From the IMG/VR virus record IMGVR_UViG_3300044843_000161, positions 1 through 20,855 of that record: a stretch of 20,855 nt of DNA; one strand, 5' to 3'. The notes under the pieces were generated by a model. The model saw nothing but the letters and a program-made list of their open reading frames with translations, was not told the origin of the DNA and made no database searches. A program made the translations under genes and the position numbers. This stretch comes from a virus. Positions within the stretch are counted from its first letter, which is position 1. The number at the start of each line of letters is the position of its first letter. This document shows positions 67 through 18,534 of the stretch, piece by piece.

Positions 67-1356
67 ATGAAAAGCGACACTAAAAAATGGCCAGCCGCCA
101 AAGTGGAACTGATGCCGGTCTCTCGGGTCGGTCCCTATGCCCGGAACTCTCGCACCCACAGCGACGAGCAGGTGGCGCAGATCGCCGCTTCCATCAACGA
201 GTGGGGATGGACTATCCCGGTGCTTGTTGACGAAGGCGGCCAACTGATCGCCGGTCATGGTCGCCTGCTGGCGGCCCGTAAACTCGGGTTGCCGGAAGTC
301 CCGGCCATGACGGCGACTGGATGGACCGAGGCTCAGAAGAAAGCCTACGTCATCGCCGACAACAAGCTGGCGCTGAATGCCGGGTGGGACTTGGACGCGC
401 TCAAGGTTGAGCTTGCCGATTTGGGCGAGCTTGGATTTGACGTCGGGCTGACCGGCTTCGGCGGCGATGAGCTTGCCTACTTGCTTGCCGAGCAAACGGA
501 AGGTCTGACCGATCCCGACGACGTTCCAGAGCCTCCCGCCGATCCGGTGAGCGTCGAGGGCGATGTGTGGGTGTTGGGGAACCATCGTATCATCTGCGGA
601 TCGTCAACCGATGCCCATACGGTCGAGAAACTGCTTGGCCCGGTCAAGCCGCACCTGATGGTCACTGATCCGCCTTATGGCGTCGAGTATGATGCCAACT
701 GGCGCAATGAAGCGGTCATGGTCAAGGGCGAGAAGCCTGGGCAGCATGGATCAAGATCAATCGGCAAAGTGCTGAACGACGACAAGGCCGACTGGCGCGA
801 AGCCTGGGCGCTGTTCCCCGGAGATGTTGCCTATGTTTGGCATGCCGGGTTGTTCGCTGGCGTGGTCGCGGACTCCCTGATTTCCTGCGATTTCACGTTG
901 CGCTCCCAGATCATCTGGGCCAAGAGCAATTTTGCCATCGGGCGCGGCGACTATCATTGGCACCACGAGCCGTGTTGGTATGTCGTCCGACAGAAGGCCA
1001 CCGGCCACTACTGCGGAGACCGCAAGCAGACAACCCTCTGGCAAATCCCCAAGCCTGCGAAGTCCGAGACCGGCCACAGCACCCAAAAGCCCGTCGAGTG
1101 CATGAAGCGCCCCATCGAGAACAACAGCAGCCCCGGCCAAGCCGTCTACGAGCCATTCAGCGGTTCCGGCACGACCATCATCGCCGGTGAGATGACCGGG
1201 CGGCACATCTATGCCATCGAGCTAAACCCGGCCTATGTGGACGTTGCCGTCAAGCGGTGGCAGGAGTTCACCGGGAAGCAAGCAACTCTAGAAGCAACCG
1301 GCGCGACGTTCGCCCAGGTCGCAGAGGACAAGACCAATGCCAATGCCGCCGCATAA
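67..1356 (+). CDS. ParB-like domain / DNA methyltransferase fusion
   Basis: A 429-residue DNA modification protein. Residues about 12-100 resemble a ParB/sulfiredoxin-type domain, with the typical motif AGHGRLLAARKLG at 62-74. The C-terminal part is an amino-methyltransferase. The catalytic motif DPPY is at 201-204, HSTQKPVE at 337-344, and the S-adenosylmethionine-binding motif EPFSGSGTT at 362-370. The order, catalytic motif before SAM motif, is that of the beta class, and DPPY favours N6-adenine methylation, with N4-cytosine possible. Proteins of this architecture are common just upstream of phage terminases, where they may protect phage DNA from host restriction; that role is inferred. 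The ATG at 67 has GGGGAG 12 bases upstream. The 3' end overlaps the small terminase gene by 20 bases. The recognition sequence cannot be predicted. Confidence 0.93.
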   Translation: MKSDTKKWPAAKVELMPVSRVGPYARNSRTHSDEQVAQIAASINEWGWTIPVLVDEGGQLIAGHGRLLAARKLGLPEVPAMTATGWTEAQKKAYVIADNKLALNAGWDLDALKVELADLGELGFDVGLTGFGGDELAYLLAEQTEGLTDPDDVPEPPADPVSVEGDVWVLGNHRIICGSSTDAHTVEKLLGPVKPHLMVTDPPYGVEYDANWRNEAVMVKGEKPGQHGSRSIGKVLNDDKADWREAWALFPGDVAYVWHAGLFAGVVADSLISCDFTLRSQIIWAKSNFAIGRGDYHWHHEPCWYVVRQKATGHYCGDRKQTTLWQIPKPAKSETGHSTQKPVECMKRPIENNSSPGQAVYEPFSGSGTTIIAGEMTGRHIYAIELNPAYVDVAVKRWQEFTGKQATLEATGATFAQVAEDKTNANAAA

Positions 1357-3119: not shown

Positions 3120-5027
3120 TTGGCGAAGAACGCGGGAAGTAACGATGACCTGATCCGGGAGGCCCGCGAACGGCTTCACGAATCCGAGACTGTTTCGGAC
3201 GACAACCGCCGGAACTTCGAGGAAGACATTGACTTCGCTCGCATGGCGAACCAGTGGCAAGACAAGGATCGAAAACAGCGCGAGCTTGAAGGTCGACCGT
3301 GTCTGACCATCAACAAGCTTCCCGCGTTCATTCGCTCAGTCGTCAACGAAAGCCGCCAGTCCAAGCCGGGCGTCAAGGTCTCTCCGGTTGACAGCGGCGC
3401 TGACGTTGACACTGCCGAGGTCATCTCCGGCCTGATCCGCTCCATTGAGCGCGACAGCATGGCCGATGTGGCATATGACACCGCCATTGACCAAGCCGTG
3501 TCTGGCGGCTTCGGGTTCTTCCGTATATCCATCGACTACGCCCATGAGGACAGCTTTGACCTCGTGGCGAAAATCGAGCGCGTCCCTAATTCTCTCATGG
3601 TCCATTGGGATGTGTCGTCAACCTCGTTTGACGCTTCGGACTGGAGCTATGCTTTCGTCTCGGACTTCCTGACCCAGGAGGAGTTCAAGCGCCGCTACCC
3701 CAAGGCCACGCCGGTTTCGTTCGAGGCTGGGGATCAGGAATGGCACCAAGATTGGGTGCAGGACGACAGCGTCCGCATCTCCGAATATTGGTCGCGCCAG
3801 GAAAATGAGCGGGAGATCATCCAGCTTTCGGACGGCCGCGTTATGCGGGCCGATAGCATGCCCAACGTGGCGCGCCAGTTCTTCGCTGCTGGTGGCGTCG
3901 AGTTGGGCGGGATGCTCAAGGAAGATGATGCCGTACAAGCCTTTATGGCGATCAACGGGTTGACAGAGACGCGCCGCCGAAAGGCCAAGTTCCACACAGT
4001 GACCCGCCGCCTCATGACTGGCGTCGAAGTGATTGAAGAAGAAGAATGGCCAGGATCCACCATTCCTATCTGCCCGGTGTGGGGCGAGGAGATTTTCCAC
4101 AAAGGCAACCGCTATTTCCGGTCCATGATCAGGGACGCCCGCGACCCGCAGGCCATTTTCAATTTCTGGCGGTCGGCGACCACCGAGCTTGTTGCCCTTG
4201 CCCCCCGTGCGCCATGGGTCGGCCCTCTCGGGTTCGTCCCGAGGGGACATGAGGCCAAGTGGGCAAGCGCGAACACCCGGAGCCATGCATTCCTCGAATA
4301 CGACCCGTCATCGGGCGGGGCACCCCGTCGCGAGGCTTTTGCCGGTGTTCCGGCTGGGGCGCTACAGGAGGCCATGAACGCCGCCGATGACATCAAGGCC
4401 ATCACGGGCATTTATGACAGTTCCCTCGGTGCCAGGAGCAACGAGACGAGCGGCCGGGCCATCATGGCGCGGGAAGCTCAGGGAGACGTGGCGAACTTCC
4501 ACTTCAAGGACAACTTGGCCCGTGCCATTGGCTACGCCGGTCGTGTGCTGGTAGAAATTATCCCGTCCATCTACAGCCCGCGTGAGACGATCCGCATCCT
4601 TGGCGAGGACAGCAAGGAGAAGGTCGTCCGCCTGACCATGGAAGACGGCGGGTCTGTCCTTCCCGGCATCGAAGGTGAGCAGCGCCTCTATAACCTGGCC
4701 GTGGGCCGGTATGACGTCACCGTGGCCTCCGGCCCAACCACTGCCACCCAGCGCGAGGAAACCCGCGAAACGTTGATCGAGATCATGCGGGCGGTGCCGG
4801 ATAGCGCCGCGCTCTTGGGCGACGTGCTGCTCGAGCATATGGACTTCGTAGGCGCGGACAAGGTTTCCAAGCGCCTCCAGGCGATGCTTCCGCCCCAGGT
4901 CATGGCAGCCGAGGGCATTGTGCCTCCGCCCATGCCGATGCAGCCGCAGCAGATGCCGCCTGCCATGAATCCTAACCAAATGCCCGGAGCGGCCCCGCCG
5001 CAGCCGGGAACGCCGCCGGGGGTGTAA
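3120..5027 (+). CDS. Portal protein, P22-like
   Basis: A 635-residue portal protein, forming the ring at one head vertex through which DNA enters and leaves and on which the tail is built. The N-terminal half has the pattern I know from P22-type portals: a charged helical start, then LTINKLPAFIRSVVNESRQ, a stretch on tracking many orthologous states (DTAEVISGLIRSIE), and a Gly-rich GGFGFFRIS strand. The long C-terminal part has KAITGIYDSSLGARSNETSG, the usual portal helix region. The last 45 or so residues are rich in Pro, Met and Gln and probably disordered. The start is TTG at 3120, with GGGGAG at 3105-3110 nine bases upstream; the first in-frame ATG is at 3243 and would remove conserved sequence. 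It follows the terminase and precedes the scaffold, the normal order. Confidence 0.95.
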   Translation: MAKNAGSNDDLIREARERLHESETVSDDNRRNFEEDIDFARMANQWQDKDRKQRELEGRPCLTINKLPAFIRSVVNESRQSKPGVKVSPVDSGADVDTAEVISGLIRSIERDSMADVAYDTAIDQAVSGGFGFFRISIDYAHEDSFDLVAKIERVPNSLMVHWDVSSTSFDASDWSYAFVSDFLTQEEFKRRYPKATPVSFEAGDQEWHQDWVQDDSVRISEYWSRQENEREIIQLSDGRVMRADSMPNVARQFFAAGGVELGGMLKEDDAVQAFMAINGLTETRRRKAKFHTVTRRLMTGVEVIEEEEWPGSTIPICPVWGEEIFHKGNRYFRSMIRDARDPQAIFNFWRSATTELVALAPRAPWVGPLGFVPRGHEAKWASANTRSHAFLEYDPSSGGAPRREAFAGVPAGALQEAMNAADDIKAITGIYDSSLGARSNETSGRAIMAREAQGDVANFHFKDNLARAIGYAGRVLVEIIPSIYSPRETIRILGEDSKEKVVRLTMEDGGSVLPGIEGEQRLYNLAVGRYDVTVASGPTTATQREETRETLIEIMRAVPDSAALLGDVLLEHMDFVGADKVSKRLQAMLPPQVMAAEGIVPPPMPMQPQQMPPAMNPNQMPGAAPPQPGTPPGV

Positions 5028-5990: not shown

Positions 5991-7238
5991 ATGGCGAACA
6001 CCACGCTTACTGCGGACATCATCGCGTCCGCCGCCGTGGCCGTGCTCGATAATGAGCTGGTCATGGCTCGCAAGGTCTTCCGAGGCTACGAGGAGGACTT
6101 TGGCAAAAAGGTCAACGGTTACGAGGTTGGAGAAACCATCTCGATCCGCAAGCCTGCCGACTTCACCGTTCGCGACGGCGCTACCGCGTCGGCCCAGAAC
6201 GTGACCGAGGGCAAGACCACCATCACCGTGGACAAGCGGAAGGGTGTCGATTTCAAGTTTACGTCGCAGGACCTGACCCTGAACATCAAAGACCTGACCG
6301 AGCGTGTCATTCGCCCGGCCATGGTGCAGCTTGCCAACCAGATTGACGTTGACCTGCATGGCCTTTACAAGAAGGTCCCGAACTGGGTCGGCACTCCCGG
6401 CCAGACCATCAACTCCTTCGCGGATTTCGCCAAGGGGCCGGAACGTCTGGACGAGAACGCCGCCCCCCAGGATATGCGGTGCGCCGTGATGGCTCCCGCC
6501 GATCACTGGGGCCTTGTGGGCTCTCAGACCGCGCTGTTCACCGATACCATCGTGAAGCCCGCCTATCGGCAGGGCAGCGCTGGCATGATCGGCAACGTCG
6601 ACACCTACATGACCCAGAACGTCGCCACCCTGACCACCGGCACCCGTGCGGGCTCGATCCTGGTGGACCTGTCCATCACGACCTCGACCACCACCTACGC
6701 GGCGGTCAAGGATACGTGGGTCCAGACCATCCACATCGACGCTCTGACCAACGCCACCGATACCGTCAAGAATGGCGAGGTGTTCACCATCGCTGGCGTC
6801 TATGACGTCAACCCGGTGACCAAGGCCCCGTTGGCGCACTTGAAGATGTTCACCGTCACCGCCGACGCTACCGCGTCCGGCAACGAGGTTGACCTGATCA
6901 TCAGCCCGCCGATGATTTGGACTGGCGCCCACAAGAATGTGGACGTCCAGGGCGTTTCCGACCTGAACAATCAGGCCGTAACGTTCATGGGTTCGGCCAG
7001 CACCAACTATCGTCAGAACATGGTGTTCCACAAGAACGCCTTCGCTCTGGTGACTGTGCCGCTGGTGGCCCCGCCCGGCGCTGTTGACGTGGGTCGCAAG
7101 ACTTACAACGGCACCAGCGTCCGCGTGATCCCGGTCTATGACGGTATCACCGATGAGTCGCTGTGGCGTCTGGATGTGCTCTATGGCATGCAGGCCATTG
7201 ATCCGCGCCTGGCCGTCCGTCTGTCGGGCACCGCCTAA
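5991..7238 (+). CDS. Major capsid (coat) protein, P22-like
   Basis: A 415-residue coat protein that builds the icosahedral head. The N-terminal part (ADIIASAAVAVLDNELVMAR, then GYEVGETISIRKP and GVDFKFTSQDLTLNIKDLTE) follows the pattern of P22 gp5-type coat proteins, with the N-arm, E-loop and spine helix of the HK97 fold. A Thr-rich beta segment of roughly residues 210-310 corresponds in position to the inserted domain of this family. The end (TSVRVIPVYDGITDESLWRL) is typical of the P-domain strand and C-terminus. The ATG at 5991 has AAAGGA at 5976-5981; the same TCGAAAGGA context precedes the next gene, at 7273-7281. A strong GC hairpin follows the stop. Confidence 0.93.
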   Translation: MANTTLTADIIASAAVAVLDNELVMARKVFRGYEEDFGKKVNGYEVGETISIRKPADFTVRDGATASAQNVTEGKTTITVDKRKGVDFKFTSQDLTLNIKDLTERVIRPAMVQLANQIDVDLHGLYKKVPNWVGTPGQTINSFADFAKGPERLDENAAPQDMRCAVMAPADHWGLVGSQTALFTDTIVKPAYRQGSAGMIGNVDTYMTQNVATLTTGTRAGSILVDLSITTSTTTYAAVKDTWVQTIHIDALTNATDTVKNGEVFTIAGVYDVNPVTKAPLAHLKMFTVTADATASGNEVDLIISPPMIWTGAHKNVDVQGVSDLNNQAVTFMGSASTNYRQNMVFHKNAFALVTVPLVAPPGAVDVGRKTYNGTSVRVIPVYDGITDESLWRLDVLYGMQAIDPRLAVRLSGTA

Positions 7239-11057: not shown

Positions 11058-12575
11058 ATGGCAACTGCCCCGGCCCGCCCCAAGACGATCCCCGCCCCGG
11101 TTGGCGGGTGGGACACGCGGTCAGCTATTGCCGAGATGCCCGAGAAGAATGCCGTCATCATGGACAACTGGTTCCCCGGAACCGACCGCGTGACGCTCCG
11201 GCGTGGCAGCGACGACCACGTTACCGGCATGAGCGGCAATGTGGAGACGCTGTTTGAATATGCCCCCCTGACGGGATCGGGTGCTTTGTTTGCGGCCAAC
11301 GGCGGGAACATCTACGACGTGACCTCGGCGGGCACGGTGGGCGCTGCCGTCGCCACCGGCAAGACAAATGCAAGATGGCAGCAGTTGCAGATCGGGACTG
11401 CGGGCGGGCAGTTCCTCTTTGCCGTCAACGGCGCGGATGCCCCCATTAATTACAACGGCTCGGCATGGGCCACGACCCCGGCCATCACAGGCCCGACGGC
11501 CACCAACCTGGCTTGGTGCAACCTGCATCAACGGCGGCTCTGGATTGGCGAAAAGGACAGCCTCCAGGCGTGGTATCTGCCCGTCAACTCCATCGGCGGC
11601 GCGGCTACGGCTTTCAGTCTTGCCGGTGTGGCAAAGCTCGGCGGCTATATCATGGCGATGGGCACTTGGACCCGTGACGCGGGCGACGGCCCGGATGACG
11701 TGGCGGTGTTTATCACGTCCGAAGGTGAAGCCATCATTTACCAGGGAACCGACCCGTCCTCTGCCTCGACGTGGGCTCTGACCGGCGTGTTCCGCATCGG
11801 CAAGCCTATCGGGCGGCGGTGCATCATCAAGGGCGGAGGCGACCTGATCATCATCACCCAGGACGGTTTTGTGAACGCGGCTTCGATCCTCGTTACCGAC
11901 CGCGCCGAGGCCGAGCGGGTGGCGCTTTCGTCCCAGATCAACAAGGCAGTGAACGACGCGGTGCGGTCATATGGCGGGCTGTTCGGGTGGCAACCCATCA
12001 TCTACCCGCTGGGGACGATGCTGATGGTCAATGTCCCCCAGTCGGCTACCGTCGCCCACCAATATGTCTTCAACACCCTCACGGGCGCTCCCTGCCGGTT
12101 CAAGGGCATGAACGCCCTATGCTGGGGGTTGCTCAACGATGGGCTCTATTTCGGCACGTCGGACGGGCGAGTGGTGCAAGCAGACACCGGGACCAGCGAC
12201 AACGGCACGGCCATCGAGGGCGATTGCCTCCAGGCGTTCTCCGACTTCGGTTCCCCGAACATCAAGCGGTGCAATCTGGTTGAGCCGGTATTTGACAGCG
12301 TGGGCAACCCGAATGCCGCGCTTGATCTCAATGTCGATTATCAGATCAAAGCCCCGACGGGAGTTTCTACGCCTTCGCCTTCGTCGTCCGCCCGGTGGGG
12401 CATCTCGAAATGGGGAATCGGGACCTGGGGAACCTTGACCCAGATTTACAAGGGCTGGCGGGGCGTTCGCGGCATCGGCAAGGCGCTTTCGCTTCGAGTG
12501 CGGGTTTCCACCACGTCTGCCCGCCCGGCATGGATCACCACGAATTTCAGTTTCACGGCGGGGGGTATCCTATGA
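11058..12575 (+). CDS. Putative tail nozzle/stopper-like beta-rich protein
   Basis: A 505-residue protein following the adaptor gene by 2 bases. The N-terminus (PAPVGGWDTRSAIAEMPEKN, then AVIMDNWFPGTDRVTLRRG) is a hallmark of a common phage family whose members I associate with short-tail tube or nozzle proteins, comparable in role to T7 gp12 or P22 gp10. Repeated beta units follow, several with W/G-rich turns (LFAVNGADAPINYNG, ALCWGLLNDGLYFGTSDGRV), consistent with a propeller-like middle. Near the C-terminus a WGISKWGIGTWG repeat is seen. No clear Shine-Dalgarno is present. The stop overlaps the next gene's start as ATGA. The virion role is well supported by context; the exact tail component is inferred. 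Confidence 0.83.
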   Translation: MATAPARPKTIPAPVGGWDTRSAIAEMPEKNAVIMDNWFPGTDRVTLRRGSDDHVTGMSGNVETLFEYAPLTGSGALFAANGGNIYDVTSAGTVGAAVATGKTNARWQQLQIGTAGGQFLFAVNGADAPINYNGSAWATTPAITGPTATNLAWCNLHQRRLWIGEKDSLQAWYLPVNSIGGAATAFSLAGVAKLGGYIMAMGTWTRDAGDGPDDVAVFITSEGEAIIYQGTDPSSASTWALTGVFRIGKPIGRRCIIKGGGDLIIITQDGFVNAASILVTDRAEAERVALSSQINKAVNDAVRSYGGLFGWQPIIYPLGTMLMVNVPQSATVAHQYVFNTLTGAPCRFKGMNALCWGLLNDGLYFGTSDGRVVQADTGTSDNGTAIEGDCLQAFSDFGSPNIKRCNLVEPVFDSVGNPNAALDLNVDYQIKAPTGVSTPSPSSSARWGISKWGIGTWGTLTQIYKGWRGVRGIGKALSLRVRVSTTSARPAWITTNFSFTAGGIL

Positions 12576-13441
12576 GCGATTTGGCGCGATACCTGGCTGG
12601 GGACAACTACCTGACCCGCTCGGCTTCCGGCATCAAGCGCGGCATGTCCGCCCTGGCCGATTCGCTCACTGCTAGGTCAAACGAGGGCATCGAGAACATG
12701 GGCGCGGCACTGTCCGGTGTCCGGGTGCGGCCTGGGGCTATCCTGACCGATGCCGGGTATGTAATGCCGGACGCATCGGGACAGCCTGATTTTACGCAGG
12801 TCGGGCTTGAACGTGAGCCGGACACCATGCGGCTTCTGGAGTTGTTCGGCTCGGCCATGACCCCAGTAAAAGGTGCAAGCCTTGCCGCGAAGTCCGGCGC
12901 GGGCGGGAAGGTCGCTGCGGACGTGGCGCGGGCGTTGCCGATGGACGAGGCTTCGCGCATGGCGAGAGCGGCGGAGATGGGGTTTGATCCATCGCGTGTT
13001 GTTTATCACGGGACAGATAGTGATTTTAGAGAGTTCGATTTAGGCAGGTCTTCCAACCCAAAGGAGAATGCTGTCTTTTTTACGAATAAGGCGTCAGAGG
13101 CAGATCGTTTTGGGGAGCCAAGGGAGTTCCTGACGAAAGGCGACATGCTCGACGTACGGTGGAAAGATTTCAGCGAAGACCCTATATATGACCCTGAGGT
13201 CATGGCTGCAATTCTTGAGCAAGCGCGGTCTGGGGGACGGCAGGGTGCCATTATAAGGGGTGTCCAAAATTTTGAAGGTGGGCCGCTTTCCACCACAACA
13301 GCGGTATTCGACCCCGCAAACATCCGCTCCCGCTTCGCCGCATTTGACCCCGCTCGCGCAGATGAGGCTGACTTGCTCGCCTCCCGCGCCAATCTCGGGC
13401 CAATCGTCAACGCGCTCTTGCAGGGGTATGACCGGCGATGA
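12572..13441 (+). CDS. ADP-ribosyltransferase-like (ART-PolyVal type) phage protein
   Basis: A 289-residue protein starting at the ATGA overlap with the tail gene; the frame is open to 12395 but that part lies inside the upstream gene. Residues 1-125 are low-complexity helical and resemble phage ejection-protein N-termini. Residues about 130-270 match the ADP-ribosyltransferase domain found in phage polyvalent proteins: AAEMGFDP then VVYHGT (H146) at 143-148, DFREFDLGRS at 151-160, AVFFTNKASEADRF at 167-180, and the closing FDPANIRSRFAAFDPARA at 246-263. The YHGT and F/YFT strands are the usual NAD-binding landmarks; the third catalytic residue cannot be fixed by eye. The ART part is in markedly lower-GC DNA than the N-terminal part. 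It may modify a host protein after injection. Target unknown. Confidence 0.85.
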   Translation: MSDLARYLAGDNYLTRSASGIKRGMSALADSLTARSNEGIENMGAALSGVRVRPGAILTDAGYVMPDASGQPDFTQVGLEREPDTMRLLELFGSAMTPVKGASLAAKSGAGGKVAADVARALPMDEASRMARAAEMGFDPSRVVYHGTDSDFREFDLGRSSNPKENAVFFTNKASEADRFGEPREFLTKGDMLDVRWKDFSEDPIYDPEVMAAILEQARSGGRQGAIIRGVQNFEGGPLSTTTAVFDPANIRSRFAAFDPARADEADLLASRANLGPIVNALLQGYDRR

Positions 13442-13848
13442 TGCGCCTCGTCTGTGACCGGCAAGACGAGTTGCTGGCTTGGGCAAAGCAAAGGATGCCG
13501 TTGCTGAATATCGAGGGAAGCGCAGCGGCAATCGGTGTTGAGGACGGGGAAATCATCGCGGCGGCGGTATTTGACAGATACCGGGGGCATGATATAGAAA
13601 TATCATTTGCAGCCGATAGCCCACGATGGGCGCGGCGCGGTGTAATCCGGGGTATTTTCCATTACCCCTTTGTGCAGCTTGGTTGCGTTCGTCTGACCAC
13701 CATCACGGCAGAAAACAACACCAGGGCACGGCGGCTCGATGAGGGCTTAGGCTTTGTCTTGGAGGGCATCCACCCTAATGGCCTCGCGCCGGGTGTGACT
13801 GCGGTTTCCTACGGGATGCAACGGAGCGAATGCAAATGGCTGAAATGA
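13438..13848 (+). CDS. GNAT family N-acetyltransferase
   Basis: A 136-residue protein with the acetyl-CoA-dependent N-acetyltransferase fold. The recognisable parts are the central strands GVEDGEIIAAAVFDRY at 33-48 and HDIEISFAADSP at 51-62, the helix ARRGVIRGIFHYPFVQLGC-like segment at 65-83, and the typical closing motif AENNTRARRLDEGLGFVLEG at 91-110 (N-x-x-A-x-x-x-x-x-x-LGF-x-x-EG). Small acetyltransferases of this subtype are often found among phage tail and ejection genes; the substrate is unknown. The start overlaps the ART-like gene as ATGA, so the two are probably co-translated. The first half is relatively AT-rich like the ART domain before it. Confidence 0.85.
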   Translation: MMRLVCDRQDELLAWAKQRMPLLNIEGSAAAIGVEDGEIIAAAVFDRYRGHDIEISFAADSPRWARRGVIRGIFHYPFVQLGCVRLTTITAENNTRARRLDEGLGFVLEGIHPNGLAPGVTAVSYGMQRSECKWLK

Positions 13849-14759
13849 TTTGGATGGCGCAGCCCGTTCAGCAGCAACAGGGTAAAGGCGGCGGTGGCGG
13901 TGGTTATAGCCCGCCTCCCGCTCCTGACCCTGCGGCGACTGCTGCGGCTCAGGCGACGGCGAACAAAGAATCCGCCATCGCTCAGTCCGAGCTGAACATG
14001 ATCAACCAGTACACCCCTCAAGGGAAGGTTGAATATACCCAGCGCGGGACATCGGCAGAGGGAACCCCCCAATATTCCGCCACTCAGACTTACTCCCCGG
14101 AACAGCAGGCGCTCTATGACCTGACCTCCCAGGCGGGGCAGAAGTTCGGTGAGACGGCAAATACCCAGATGGACGCGGTGCGCGGTCGCCTTGCCGTGCC
14201 CCTCGACTTTTCTGGACTTGGCTCCGCTCCGACCATGAGCGAAGCCACCCGCCAGTCCGTGGCGAATTCGATGTATGAGCGGCTGAACCCGCAGTTTGAC
14301 CGAGACCGGGCCGCTCTTGAAACGCAGTTGGCGAACCAGGGCATCACCATGGGCAGCGCGGCTTACGGCACCGCCATGGATGAAATCAACAGGTCCCGCA
14401 ATGACGCACGCCTCGCCGTAGACACCCAGGCGGGCAACGAGGCGTCCCGACTGTTCAGCCTGGAATCCGCCGCCCGTGATCGTGCCATCAACGAGATGGT
14501 GCAGCAGCGACAGGTCCCGCTGAACGAGCTTTCGGCCATGTTGAGCGGATCTCAGGTTCAGGGGCCGCAGTTCGTGTCCGTCCCGACGGCGCAAATCAAC
14601 GCCCCGGACATCATGGGCGCGACTTACAACGCCTACAATACCCAGGTCCAGGCGGGAATGGCGAACGCCCAGCAGCAAGCGGCGCAGCGTTCGGCGGGGA
14701 CCAGCGGCCTTTATGGATTGCTCGGGTCCGGCGCAATAGCTGGCGGGATGTATTTCTGA
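13836..14759 (+). CDS. Putative internal/ejection virion protein, Gln/Ala-rich
   Basis: A 307-residue protein. The start at 13836 is preferred over 13830 because GGAG at 13823-13826 then has a 9-base spacer instead of 3. After a short start comes a Gln/Gly/Pro-rich stretch (QPVQQQQGKGGGGGGYSPPP), then a helical body with ANKESAIAQSELNMINQYTP, EYTQRG, YSPEQQALYDL and QLANQGITMGSAAYGTAMDE. The Gly/Ala-rich end finishes in GLYGLLGSGAIAGGMYF, which could insert in a membrane. The LxxQGITxGSxAYxxAMDxxxRSRNDARL pattern recurs in phage tail-associated or ejected proteins I know. The stop overlaps the PP-loop gene start as TGATG. Ejection role inferred. Confidence 0.82.
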   Translation: MAEMIWMAQPVQQQQGKGGGGGGYSPPPAPDPAATAAAQATANKESAIAQSELNMINQYTPQGKVEYTQRGTSAEGTPQYSATQTYSPEQQALYDLTSQAGQKFGETANTQMDAVRGRLAVPLDFSGLGSAPTMSEATRQSVANSMYERLNPQFDRDRAALETQLANQGITMGSAAYGTAMDEINRSRNDARLAVDTQAGNEASRLFSLESAARDRAINEMVQQRQVPLNELSAMLSGSQVQGPQFVSVPTAQINAPDIMGATYNAYNTQVQAGMANAQQQAAQRSAGTSGLYGLLGSGAIAGGMYF

Positions 14760-15469
14760 TGACCAAGGCGCTGTTCTTCTCTGGAGGAAAGGACAGCCTA
14801 GCCTGCCTCTACCTCTATCGGGACGACCCCGATGTGGTGGTGGTGTACGTCGATACCGGCACGGCGTTTCCGCACATGCCGGGATTCGTCGGGGATACCG
14901 TGGCGTGGATCGGGATGCGGCTCCATATCGCTCGTCCGGACACCCCATGCGACGCATGGCAGGCCGAGAACGGCTTTCCCGCCGATGTGGTGCCTTGGAA
15001 ATACACCCCAGAGATGGCTTGGACGGTTCCCGGCATCGGCCCGGCCCGCGTTATTCCCGTCATGACGTGTTGCCAACGGAATCTGTGGGGGCCTTCCATG
15101 CAGGCCGTCAAGGATTTGGGCGCGTCCGTCGTCATTCGCGGGTCAAAGGCATGCGACCACAAGGTGGGCGTGCCGGACGGCTACGTCGAGGACGGCGTTA
15201 CGTTCATATCTCCGCTGTGGAATTGGTCGGAAAATGAGGTATTATCATACCTCGATTCTGTCGGTGCAGTTCTTCCCCCGCAATACGCGCAGGGGGGAGA
15301 CAGCCTGGATTGCTGGAACTGCACCGCTCATATGGATATCGGCGGCCCGGCGCGTTTCGCGTATATGAGGCGGCACTATCCCGACCTTTACAAGATTGCG
15401 AAGTCGAACCTTGACACCGTGCGCGGCGCTATTGCCGAAGCCCTGTCAACTACGATGATGGAGGTCTAG
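14759..15469 (+). CDS. PAPS-reductase-like PP-loop protein
   Basis: A 236-residue adenine nucleotide alpha-hydrolase of the phosphoadenosine phosphosulfate reductase family. The PP-loop SGGKDS is at residues 8-13, followed by VVVVYVDTGTAFPHM at 26-40, the usual strand carrying D32 and T33. Two cysteine pairs are visible, MTCCQR (C104, C105) and DCWNC (C185, C188), which could hold a metal or iron-sulfur cluster or take part in sulfur transfer. Related families activate sulfate or thiolate RNA or DNA (for example DndC). It starts in the previous stop (TGATG) and ends just before a strong GGAGGT. It is not a structural protein, yet sits between two putative ejection genes. Substrate unknown. 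Confidence 0.9.
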   Translation: MTKALFFSGGKDSLACLYLYRDDPDVVVVYVDTGTAFPHMPGFVGDTVAWIGMRLHIARPDTPCDAWQAENGFPADVVPWKYTPEMAWTVPGIGPARVIPVMTCCQRNLWGPSMQAVKDLGASVVIRGSKACDHKVGVPDGYVEDGVTFISPLWNWSENEVLSYLDSVGAVLPPQYAQGGDSLDCWNCTAHMDIGGPARFAYMRRHYPDLYKIAKSNLDTVRGAIAEALSTTMMEV

Positions 15470-16749: not shown

Positions 16750-18534
16750 ATGGCTGGCCCCTGGGAAAAGTTCGGGCAGCAAGCCGCGCCGGAAGGCCCG
16801 TGGGCACAGTTTGGCCCTAGGACAGCGGAGACATGGCGAGACGATGCGCCAAGCGGCGTCCCATGGGGCGGTGTTGAGAGCTTTGCGCATGGCGTTACGC
16901 AGGGACTTGGCGATGAATCGACGGCGGCGGGAATGGCTGTTCGTCGGGTCTATGATGCCATTCAATCCGGGTGGCGTCCGAACGGGCTATCTGGTCTCAT
17001 GGACGCAATCTCAGAGGGGTACGGTCAATCCCTTGCCCCTGTGCGCGACGCTCGGGACAAGTACCGCGAAGAAAGCCCCGTTGCGGCTATCGGATCCGAG
17101 TTGGCGGGTGGATTGGCAATCGGACTTGCTGGCGGGGCCGCCCTTGCCCCTGCGCGGGCCGCTGGTGCCGCTGCTCCGGTTTTGACGGGTGGCAGGGCCG
17201 CCGCTCAGAATGCCGCCATAGGGGCCGCGCAAGGCGGGCTGTACGGCTTTAACGAGGGCGAAGGCGGATTCGGCAACCGCATAACGGAAGCCGGTCAGGG
17301 CGCTGCATTGGGAGGCGTTTTTGGTGCTGCCATCCCCGCCGTGGCCGGTGTCATCGGTCGCGCCATCAGCCCCGTGCGTTCCCAGCTTACCCCCGAACAG
17401 GCTCGCTTGGCCAGGGTCGCAGCGGCGGAGGGTATCGACCTCACGCCGGGCCAGTTGACCGGAAGCAACCCGCTCCAGACCATGGAAAGCGTGTTTAGCA
17501 CTATGCCTTGGACGGCGGGCCCGCAGCGTGTCATCCAGAACGAGCAGCGCAAGCAGTTCAACCGGGCCGTTCTCTCCCGTGCGGGCATCAACGCTGACAA
17601 CGCGTCTCCCGAGGTTCTTGATCAATCGTTCCGGCAGATCGGCCAGAAATTCGACGAGGCGGCGGCCAAAACAACCGTTGCAATCGACCAGCCGTTTTTC
17701 GATTCGGTTGATAATGTCGTCAGGGAATATGGGCGGAGGCTTCCGACCGACATTGCCCCGACGTTCCAATCCTATGTGGACGACATTTCCCAGATGGCAT
17801 CCGCAGCCGCCCAGCCGGGCGTGACGGGTGTATCCATCCCCGGACGTGAATTCCAGAACATCTATAGCAACCTCCTCCGGGCGGCGCGGAACTCTAAGTC
17901 CAGGCCGGAATTGCAGGAAGCCTTGAACGAGCTTGCCAACTCGCTCGACGACGCCATGGCGCGGACTGGACGGAACCCCGGCAATCTCCCGGTCCCGGCT
18001 GGGACGCAGACGGCGGCGACCAATCCCGTTGACGAATGGCAGGCTGCCCGGTCTCTGTACCGGAACCTGCTGCCGATTGACGAGGCAATGCGCAGCACGA
18101 CGAGCGGGGCTATCGGCGGAGACATCCCCCCCACGGCTCTTTTGCAGGCCGTGCAGCGGCAAGCGGGGACGAAGGGGTACACGACAGGACAGGGCGACTT
18201 GAACGACCTCGCCCGCGTCGGCGCGGCGTTTGTGCGGGACCAAATCCCCAACAGCGCCACAGCCCAGCGGACCAAGATGCAGAACCTTCTGACCGGCGGC
18301 GCTCTGACCGGCGGCGGGGCGGCGATGATGGTTGACCCGGTGACGGCAAGCATCACGGCGGCGCTCGGCCTCGGAGGTCCTCGCATCGTCCAAACCGTTT
18401 ACAATTCCGACATGGGGCGGCGGTATCTGACCAATCAGGCGCTGGACGCGGCTATCCCGCCCGCCACTCGCAGGTCCCTAGCCCGCCTATTGGCCCAAGG
18501 GTCCGGTGTCTATTCTGGAATGAGCGAGGAGTAA
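16750..18534 (+). CDS. Large putative DNA-ejection protein with PWxxFG repeats
   Basis: A 594-residue protein, the largest after the portal. It starts with two copies of a short motif, GPWEKFGQ at 3-10 and GPWAQFGP at 16-23, a pattern I know from the N-termini of phage internal proteins. Residues about 110-207 are Gly/Ala-rich and hydrophobic (GSELAGGLAIGLAGGAALAP, ITEAGQGAALGGVFGAAIPA), a glycine-zipper-like stretch that could insert in a membrane. The rest is helical (AAEGIDLTPGQLTG, FQNIYSNLLRAARNSKSRPE). A second Gly-rich stretch lies near 516-545. GGAGG at 16736-16740 has a 9-base spacer. Such proteins are ejected to build a channel across the cell envelope; this role is inferred. Confidence 0.86.
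   Translation: MAGPWEKFGQQAAPEGPWAQFGPRTAETWRDDAPSGVPWGGVESFAHGVTQGLGDESTAAGMAVRRVYDAIQSGWRPNGLSGLMDAISEGYGQSLAPVRDARDKYREESPVAAIGSELAGGLAIGLAGGAALAPARAAGAAAPVLTGGRAAAQNAAIGAAQGGLYGFNEGEGGFGNRITEAGQGAALGGVFGAAIPAVAGVIGRAISPVRSQLTPEQARLARVAAAEGIDLTPGQLTGSNPLQTMESVFSTMPWTAGPQRVIQNEQRKQFNRAVLSRAGINADNASPEVLDQSFRQIGQKFDEAAAKTTVAIDQPFFDSVDNVVREYGRRLPTDIAPTFQSYVDDISQMASAAAQPGVTGVSIPGREFQNIYSNLLRAARNSKSRPELQEALNELANSLDDAMARTGRNPGNLPVPAGTQTAATNPVDEWQAARSLYRNLLPIDEAMRSTTSGAIGGDIPPTALLQAVQRQAGTKGYTTGQGDLNDLARVGAAFVRDQIPNSATAQRTKMQNLLTGGALTGGGAAMMVDPVTASITAALGLGGPRIVQTVYNSDMGRRYLTNQALDAAIPPATRRSLARLLAQGSGVYSGMSEE

What the first reader, a model, noticed from the sequence alone, without database searches (positions are those of the whole stretch)
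12572..13441. ADP-ribosyltransferase-like domain fused to an ejection-type N-terminus in the tail/ejection operon
Seen: YHGT at residues 145-148, AVFFTNKASEADRF at 167-180 and the closing FDPANIRSRFAAFDPARA follow a low-complexity helical N-terminus. Known: ART-type domains occur in polyvalent phage proteins thought to be delivered with phage DNA. Inference: the protein rides in the virion and modifies a host target at infection.
Basis: partly seen in the sequence, partly recalled or inferred. Interest (0 to 1): 0.72.

Follow-up and report, generated by a model that had tools for sequence, protein, structure and literature searches.

The report
Swappable ADP-ribosyltransferase cassette in phage protein
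A gene in the particle-building operon of this phage encodes a protein with an ADP-ribosyltransferase (ART) domain, and close relatives keep both ends of the protein almost unchanged while exchanging the ART domain for a different one, much as bacteria shuffle polymorphic toxins.

Summary
The ORF is real (289 aa, 12572-13441 +) and carries a complete, compact ART fold. Evidence: Pfam ART-PolyVal E=9.4e-7, just under the curated cut-off; AlphaFold pLDDT about 90 over residues 131-255; best PDB fold matches are tankyrases, MbcT and diphtheria toxin. The histidine is kept (H146), as is the strand-5 aspartate of the HYD clade (D247). The strand-2 tyrosine is Phe (F169), and the PARP-like glutamate site is Thr (T242). 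Ejection into the host is inferred from gene order only.

In the nearest relative (L001) both flanks of the gene are about 92% identical in DNA, but the ART core (352 bp) is replaced by a 637-bp ART of unrelated sequence. The pattern recurs: 83 loci hold about 60 core types between two constant anchors, PMDEASRMARA and IRSRFAxFDP. One lineage carries six core types. Cores have lower GC than their flanks (58 of 61 core types). A Mesorhizobium chromosome has two tandem copies with different cores, which argues against metagenome chimeras. Phage-particle ARTs and MuF polymorphic toxins are known; I found no description of a middle-domain ART cassette exchanged between two anchors. I rate this a new variant of a known kind.

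The parts
12572..13441 (+). ART-cassette gene, 289 aa
   Evidence: ORF; Pfam ART-PolyVal; purifying selection on flanks against L001
12572..12951 (+). conserved N-terminal part (residues 1-127), carrier of unknown fold; 92% DNA identity to L001
   Evidence: low-confidence helices in model
12938..12988 (+). left anchor PMDEASRMARAAEMGFD, where homology between relatives breaks
12952..13303 (+). exchanged ART core, 352 bp, GC 0.52 (0.5th percentile of the window); replaced by a 637-bp different ART core in L001
13007..13009 (+). H146 codon (strand 1 histidine of the HYD active site)
   Evidence: 37 of 37 relatives His
13076..13078 (+). F169 codon (strand 2 position, Y in classical members)
   Evidence: Y13/W11/F8 in relatives
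13295..13297 (+). T242 codon (position matching the PARP catalytic Glu; E in 11 relatives)
   Evidence: PARP correspondence from own knowledge
13310..13312 (+). D247 codon (strand 5 aspartate, assigned as the HYD D)
   Evidence: 30 of 37 relatives Asp; HYD definition PMC5512222
13304..13441 (+). right anchor and conserved C-terminal tail VFDPANIRSRFAAFDPARADEADLLASRANLGPIVNALLQGYDRR; residues 251-289 identical in L001
10348..11055 (+). tail protein (phrog_6013), adaptor-like
11058..12575 (+). tail gene of phrog_5107 ('amidase' label; homologues annotated 'phage stabilization protein'), immediately upstream
13438..13848 (+). GNAT (phrog_4470), directly downstream; in 46 of 72 relatives it follows the tail gene with no insert
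13830..14759 (+). virion structural protein (phrog_6121)
16750..18534 (+). DNA ejection protein (phrog_26400)
3120..5027 (+). P22-like portal protein
   Evidence: Pfam PF16510 4.6e-175
5991..7238 (+). P22-type coat protein
   Evidence: Pfam PF11651 1.4e-50

Best explanation
The gene encodes a late, virion-operon effector made of a constant carrier (residues 1-127), an exchangeable ART domain of the polyvalent-protein HYD clade (residues about 128-250) and a constant short tail. Shown: the ART fold, the retained His and Asp, the gene order, and the replacement of the whole ART domain between two fixed anchors in relatives. Inferred: recombination between anchor sequences swaps ART cassettes drawn from a shared, lower-GC pool. 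Inferred: the protein is made with the head and tail proteins, packaged, and ejected with the DNA. Inferred: the ART mono-ADP-ribosylates a host protein (or another host macromolecule) early in infection to help takeover or to counter a defence. The diversity of cores would reflect different targets or hosts.
For: ART: Pfam PF18760 9.4e-7. AlphaFold pLDDT about 90 over 131-255 with the expected strands. PDB fold matches are tankyrase, MbcT and diphtheria toxin, prob up to 0.99. BFVD 'PolyVal ADP-Ribosyltransferase' 2.1e-8. Swap: window against L001, DNA 92% on both sides of a replaced 352/637-bp core, and the new core is also ART-PolyVal at 38.4 bits. In 15 locus pairs homology stops +10 to +75 nt after the MDEA codon and resumes -18 to +12 nt from the IRSRFA anchor, with flanks 73-99% identical next to the junctions. 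There are 60 core types in 83 loci, six in one tail lineage, and shared cores across lineages. Core GC is below flank GC in 58 of 61 types, Wilcoxon p=3e-11, with no such dip in a control comparison. An isolate chromosome has two tandem copies with different cores. Virion context: neighbours are portal, terminase, head and tail genes, matching the published trend for phage ARTs (PMC9503650).
Against: No virion proteomics and no activity data. The strand-2 Tyr is Phe and the PARP-like Glu is Thr, so activity is uncertain. The N-terminal part matches no known packaging or ejection signal; a comparison with other leaders gave only weak hits. PDB fold E-values are weak (0.013). Locus pairs were chosen for low core identity, and most loci were found by searching for the left anchor, so counts describe this sample and not a frequency in nature.
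Confidence: 0.66

Rival explanations
1. The protein is a late-expressed cytoplasmic ART that is not packaged. It acts in the producing cell on the host or on competing phages, and its operon position only sets its timing.
For: The gene is facultative: 46 of 72 relatives lack any insert at this slot, so it is not needed for the particle. It moves between several slots of the operon.
Against: It is consistently inside head/tail operons across many unrelated backbones, and in several relatives the same domain is fused into large ejection-type proteins (L002, L005, L009).
Confidence: 0.22
2. The ART is catalytically dead and the domain now serves as a binding or structural module, for example a NAD or ADP-ribose binder or a decoy for a host sensor.
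For: Phe replaces Tyr and Thr replaces Glu here. A minority of other cores lose the His (R, K, T or S in about 10 of 96). The Mesorhizobium second copy is broken by a stop.
Against: The His is invariant in 37 of 37 aligned rows, the Asp is kept in 30 of 37 and an aromatic residue is kept at the strand-2 site. Mono-ARTs without the Glu are active in the PARP family (own knowledge).
Confidence: 0.2
3. The core differences are assembly chimeras or simple fast divergence rather than cassette exchange.
For: Most loci are metagenome contigs, and the anchors are short conserved stretches where assemblers could join wrong paths.
Against: Flanks stay 92-99% identical in the best pairs while cores are unalignable and differ in length. 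The same core type recurs in independent samples (for example L111/L170/L217). Junctions are in frame at the same codons. A complete isolate chromosome shows two tandem copies with different cores.
Confidence: 0.05

Closest known systems
ART-PolyVal (Pfam PF18760) / Tox-ART-HYD2 clade of polyvalent proteins (PMC5512222)
   Same: ART fold, YHGT strand 1, VFDPxxI strand 5 with Asp, phage virion-operon context; 44 of 67 sampled cores match the model at E<=0.01
   Different: The window's protein is a compact single-domain version. Tyr is Phe. Its core is exchanged between two fixed anchors.
MuF polymorphic toxins of temperate phages (PMC5576092)
   Same: Constant phage part joined to variable effector domains including ARTs, encoded among head genes, presumed ejected
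   Different: No MuF domain found. The variable domain lies in the middle, with a conserved C-terminal tail after it. No adjacent immunity gene, since the next gene overlaps by ATGA.
T4 Alt (head-packaged ART)
   Same: Phage ART thought to be delivered with the DNA
   Different: Alt belongs to the R-S-E (Alt/VIP2) clade (PMC5512222); this one is H-aromatic-D
PARP/tankyrase and diphtheria-toxin ARTs
   Same: Best solved folds for the model; H-Y-E type layout
   Different: Glu site is Thr here; 9-12% identity

Membership tests
ART-PolyVal (PF18760) | profile match above the curated cut-off | tested here: not met
   30.1 bits against 31.2 for the window protein; the partner L001 core passes with 38.4
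ART-PolyVal / Tox-ART-HYD2 | ART fold | tested here: met
   AlphaFold and Foldseek
ART-PolyVal / Tox-ART-HYD2 | His in strand 1 | tested here: met
   H146, 37/37 in alignment
ART-PolyVal / Tox-ART-HYD2 | Tyr in strand 2 | tested here: not met
   F169; relatives Y13/W11/F8, so the site is aromatic but not strictly Tyr
ART-PolyVal / Tox-ART-HYD2 | Asp in strand 5 | tested here: met
   D247 in AVFDPANI; assignment of the D to this position is my reading
ART-PolyVal | NAD-dependent transferase activity | not testable with these tools
   needs biochemistry
polyvalent protein (PMC5512222) | two or more effector domains in one polypeptide | tested here: not met
   only the ART is found in the window protein; several relatives do chain modules
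MuF polymorphic toxin | N-terminal MuF domain | tested here: not met
   no Pfam or PHROG match in residues 1-127
polymorphic toxin (works like) | constant carrier with a variable toxin domain shared between backbones | tested here: met
virion-packaged ejected protein | present in the particle and delivered to the host | not testable with these tools
   gene order only

The most novel reading that the evidence does not exclude
Short-tailed phages share a large pool of interchangeable ART cassettes that recombine between two conserved coding anchors into otherwise constant virion-operon proteins. This gives a phage counterpart of polymorphic toxins in which a middle domain, rather than the C-terminus, is exchanged and effector specificity is reset in one step.
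Probability: 0.6. Interest if true: 0.76.

Novelty: new variant of a known kind. Interest (0 to 1): 0.63.

Why it matters
If true, phages that are nearly identical elsewhere differ in the enzyme they bring to the cell, so a single swap could change which host protein or defence is hit. The near-isogenic pairs found here (for example L147/L198, flanks about 98% and core about 26% identical) are natural experiments for matching an ART cassette to its target, and the anchors give a simple way to mine many more cassettes.

Tried and rejected
phmmer of the protein against PDB sequences found nothing, so structure was needed. A first genome-contig scan with the ART alignment found no relatives. A search with the N-terminal part alone found only L001, so its wider kinship is unknown; iterated leader comparison drifted and is not used. 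A second structure, of the non-His core of Mesorhizobium copy 1, came out at low confidence (pLDDT 62) with meaningless matches, so I do not claim that non-His cores keep the ART fold. Considered and rejected: plain sequence divergence (flank identity too high), assembly artefact (isolate copy, recurring cores), and an immunity gene (no room downstream). Searches failed on coordinates or length and were repeated or dropped.

Full report
OBSERVATION. The reading frame 12572-13441 (+) encodes 289 residues. It overlaps its neighbours by ATGA at both ends: upstream the 505-aa tail gene (phrog_5107), downstream a GNAT (phrog_4470). The window is an entire IMG/VR virus record, a fragment, with P22-like portal and coat genes. 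Compared with L001, the shared parts of the gene show 37 synonymous and 4 non-synonymous codon differences, so it is a real, constrained protein.

WHAT THE DOMAIN IS. Pfam finds ART-PolyVal at E=9.4e-7, 30.1 bits, just below its cut-off of 31.2, over residues 143-182. AlphaFold with 36 relatives gives about 90 pLDDT over residues 131-255, with strands at 138-148, 168-171, 182-189, 225-232 and 240-245, and low confidence for residues 1-120. The best PDB fold matches are tankyrase catalytic domains (prob 0.99, E 0.013), then MbcT and diphtheria toxin, all ART-fold enzymes. Among predicted viral structures the model matches proteins named PolyVal ADP-ribosyltransferase at 2.1e-8. The clade is defined by H in strand 1, Y in strand 2 and D in strand 5 (PMC5512222). 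Here H146 is kept (37/37 relatives), the strand-2 site is F169 (relatives Y13, W11, F8), and the strand-5 aspartate is D247 (30/37). The site that matches the PARP glutamate is T242 (E in 11 relatives). The PARP correspondence rests on my own knowledge of the NEYIVYD motif.

THE CORE IS A CASSETTE. The nearest relative, L001, is about 92% identical in DNA near the gene up to window position 12951 and again from 13304. Between these points the window has 352 bp and L001 has 637 bp without detectable similarity. The L001 core is itself ART-PolyVal (38.4 bits). The junctions lie just before strand 1 and at the end of strand 5, so the whole catalytic domain is exchanged. The window core has GC 0.52 against 0.61 for the window, the 0.5th percentile of 352-bp windows.

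IT RECURS. In 15 pairs picked for different cores, flank homology ended +10 to +75 nt after the MDEA codon and resumed -18 to +12 nt from the right anchor. The clearest pair is L147/L198, with flanks about 98% and core about 26% identical. Grouping gave 60 core types in 83 loci. One tail lineage of 12 loci has six core types, another of 11 has three, and several core types sit on more than one backbone. Cores have lower GC than flanks in 58 of 61 types, p=3e-11, while a control comparison of flank with more distant sequence is even. By sequence, 44 of 67 sampled cores match ART-PolyVal at E<=0.01. A minority of cores have R, K, T or S where the His should be; a model for one of these was not reliable.

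NOT AN ASSEMBLY ARTEFACT. The complete chromosome of Mesorhizobium sp. L-8-3 holds two copies 1.96 kb apart, 89% identical over 615 bp up to the left anchor and different afterwards; the second copy has an in-frame stop. They lie near a terminase-like gene and phage-type genes, judged by eye from the ORF sequences.

CONTEXT. Among 72 relatives of the upstream tail gene, 46 have the GNAT directly after it, and only some carry an insert in the slot. In other phages the ART gene lies between tail adaptor and stabilization genes (L092, L091), between portal and scaffold (L003, L095), or next to portal, terminase and head genes. Some relatives are longer chains of modules, with a GNAT or a ParB-like domain detected by Pfam in two of them, a second ART-like stretch judged by eye, and a repeated linker AANASKSxGLLT. 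Published surveys report that many phage ARTs sit near packaging and head genes and propose ejection (PMC9503650), and that MuF proteins carry variable toxins (PMC5576092).

MECHANISM. Shown: fold (by prediction), conserved residues, gene order, cassette exchange. Inferred: late synthesis with the particle, packaging, ejection, NAD-dependent modification of a host target, and recombination at the anchors as the route of exchange. My estimates: ART fold 0.95, cassette exchange 0.93, active enzyme about 0.65, delivered from the virion about 0.6.

LIMITS. Most loci were collected through the left anchor, so its conservation is by construction. The right anchor, the flank identities over hundreds to thousands of bases, the GC shift and the L001 pair (found with the whole protein) are not. 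My literature searches cover only open-licence papers, and I found no account of a doubly anchored middle-domain exchange in phage ART proteins.

Noticed in passing
L242:13438-16729 (Mesorhizobium sp. L-8-3 chromosome): Tandem paralogues in a prophage-like region with different effector cores; the second is interrupted by an in-frame stop.
   Followed up: partly
L138, L214, L173, L146, L151: Long virion-operon proteins built as chains of modules (GNAT-like, YRG-type ART-like, ParB-like, HG-type ART) separated by a repeated linker AANASKSxGLLT; modules upstream of the terminal ART also differ between close relatives.
   Followed up: partly
L037:6512-7942, L041, L063: A 477-aa protein in the same slot with YQGSPHKY...GEGAQAYGWGRY, resembling the L210 core YHGSPHTF...GEGAQAYGHGLY: probably another ART-like cargo with Gln for His.
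   Followed up: no
window 14759-15469: PAPS-reductase-family gene (PF01507, 4e-15) inside the virion operon, also seen in relatives such as L012 and L079.
   Followed up: no
window 67-1356: ParB-N domain fused to an N6/N4 DNA methylase just upstream of the terminase genes.
   Followed up: no
L091:6564-8603 (MW202573.1): One protein, annotated 'DNA repair protein', with two ART-PolyVal matches and a further YRGA stretch that may be a third, between tail adaptor and stabilization genes.
   Followed up: partly
window 11058-12575: phrog_5107 is labelled 'amidase' but its homologues are tail/stabilization proteins; the label looks wrong.
   Followed up: no
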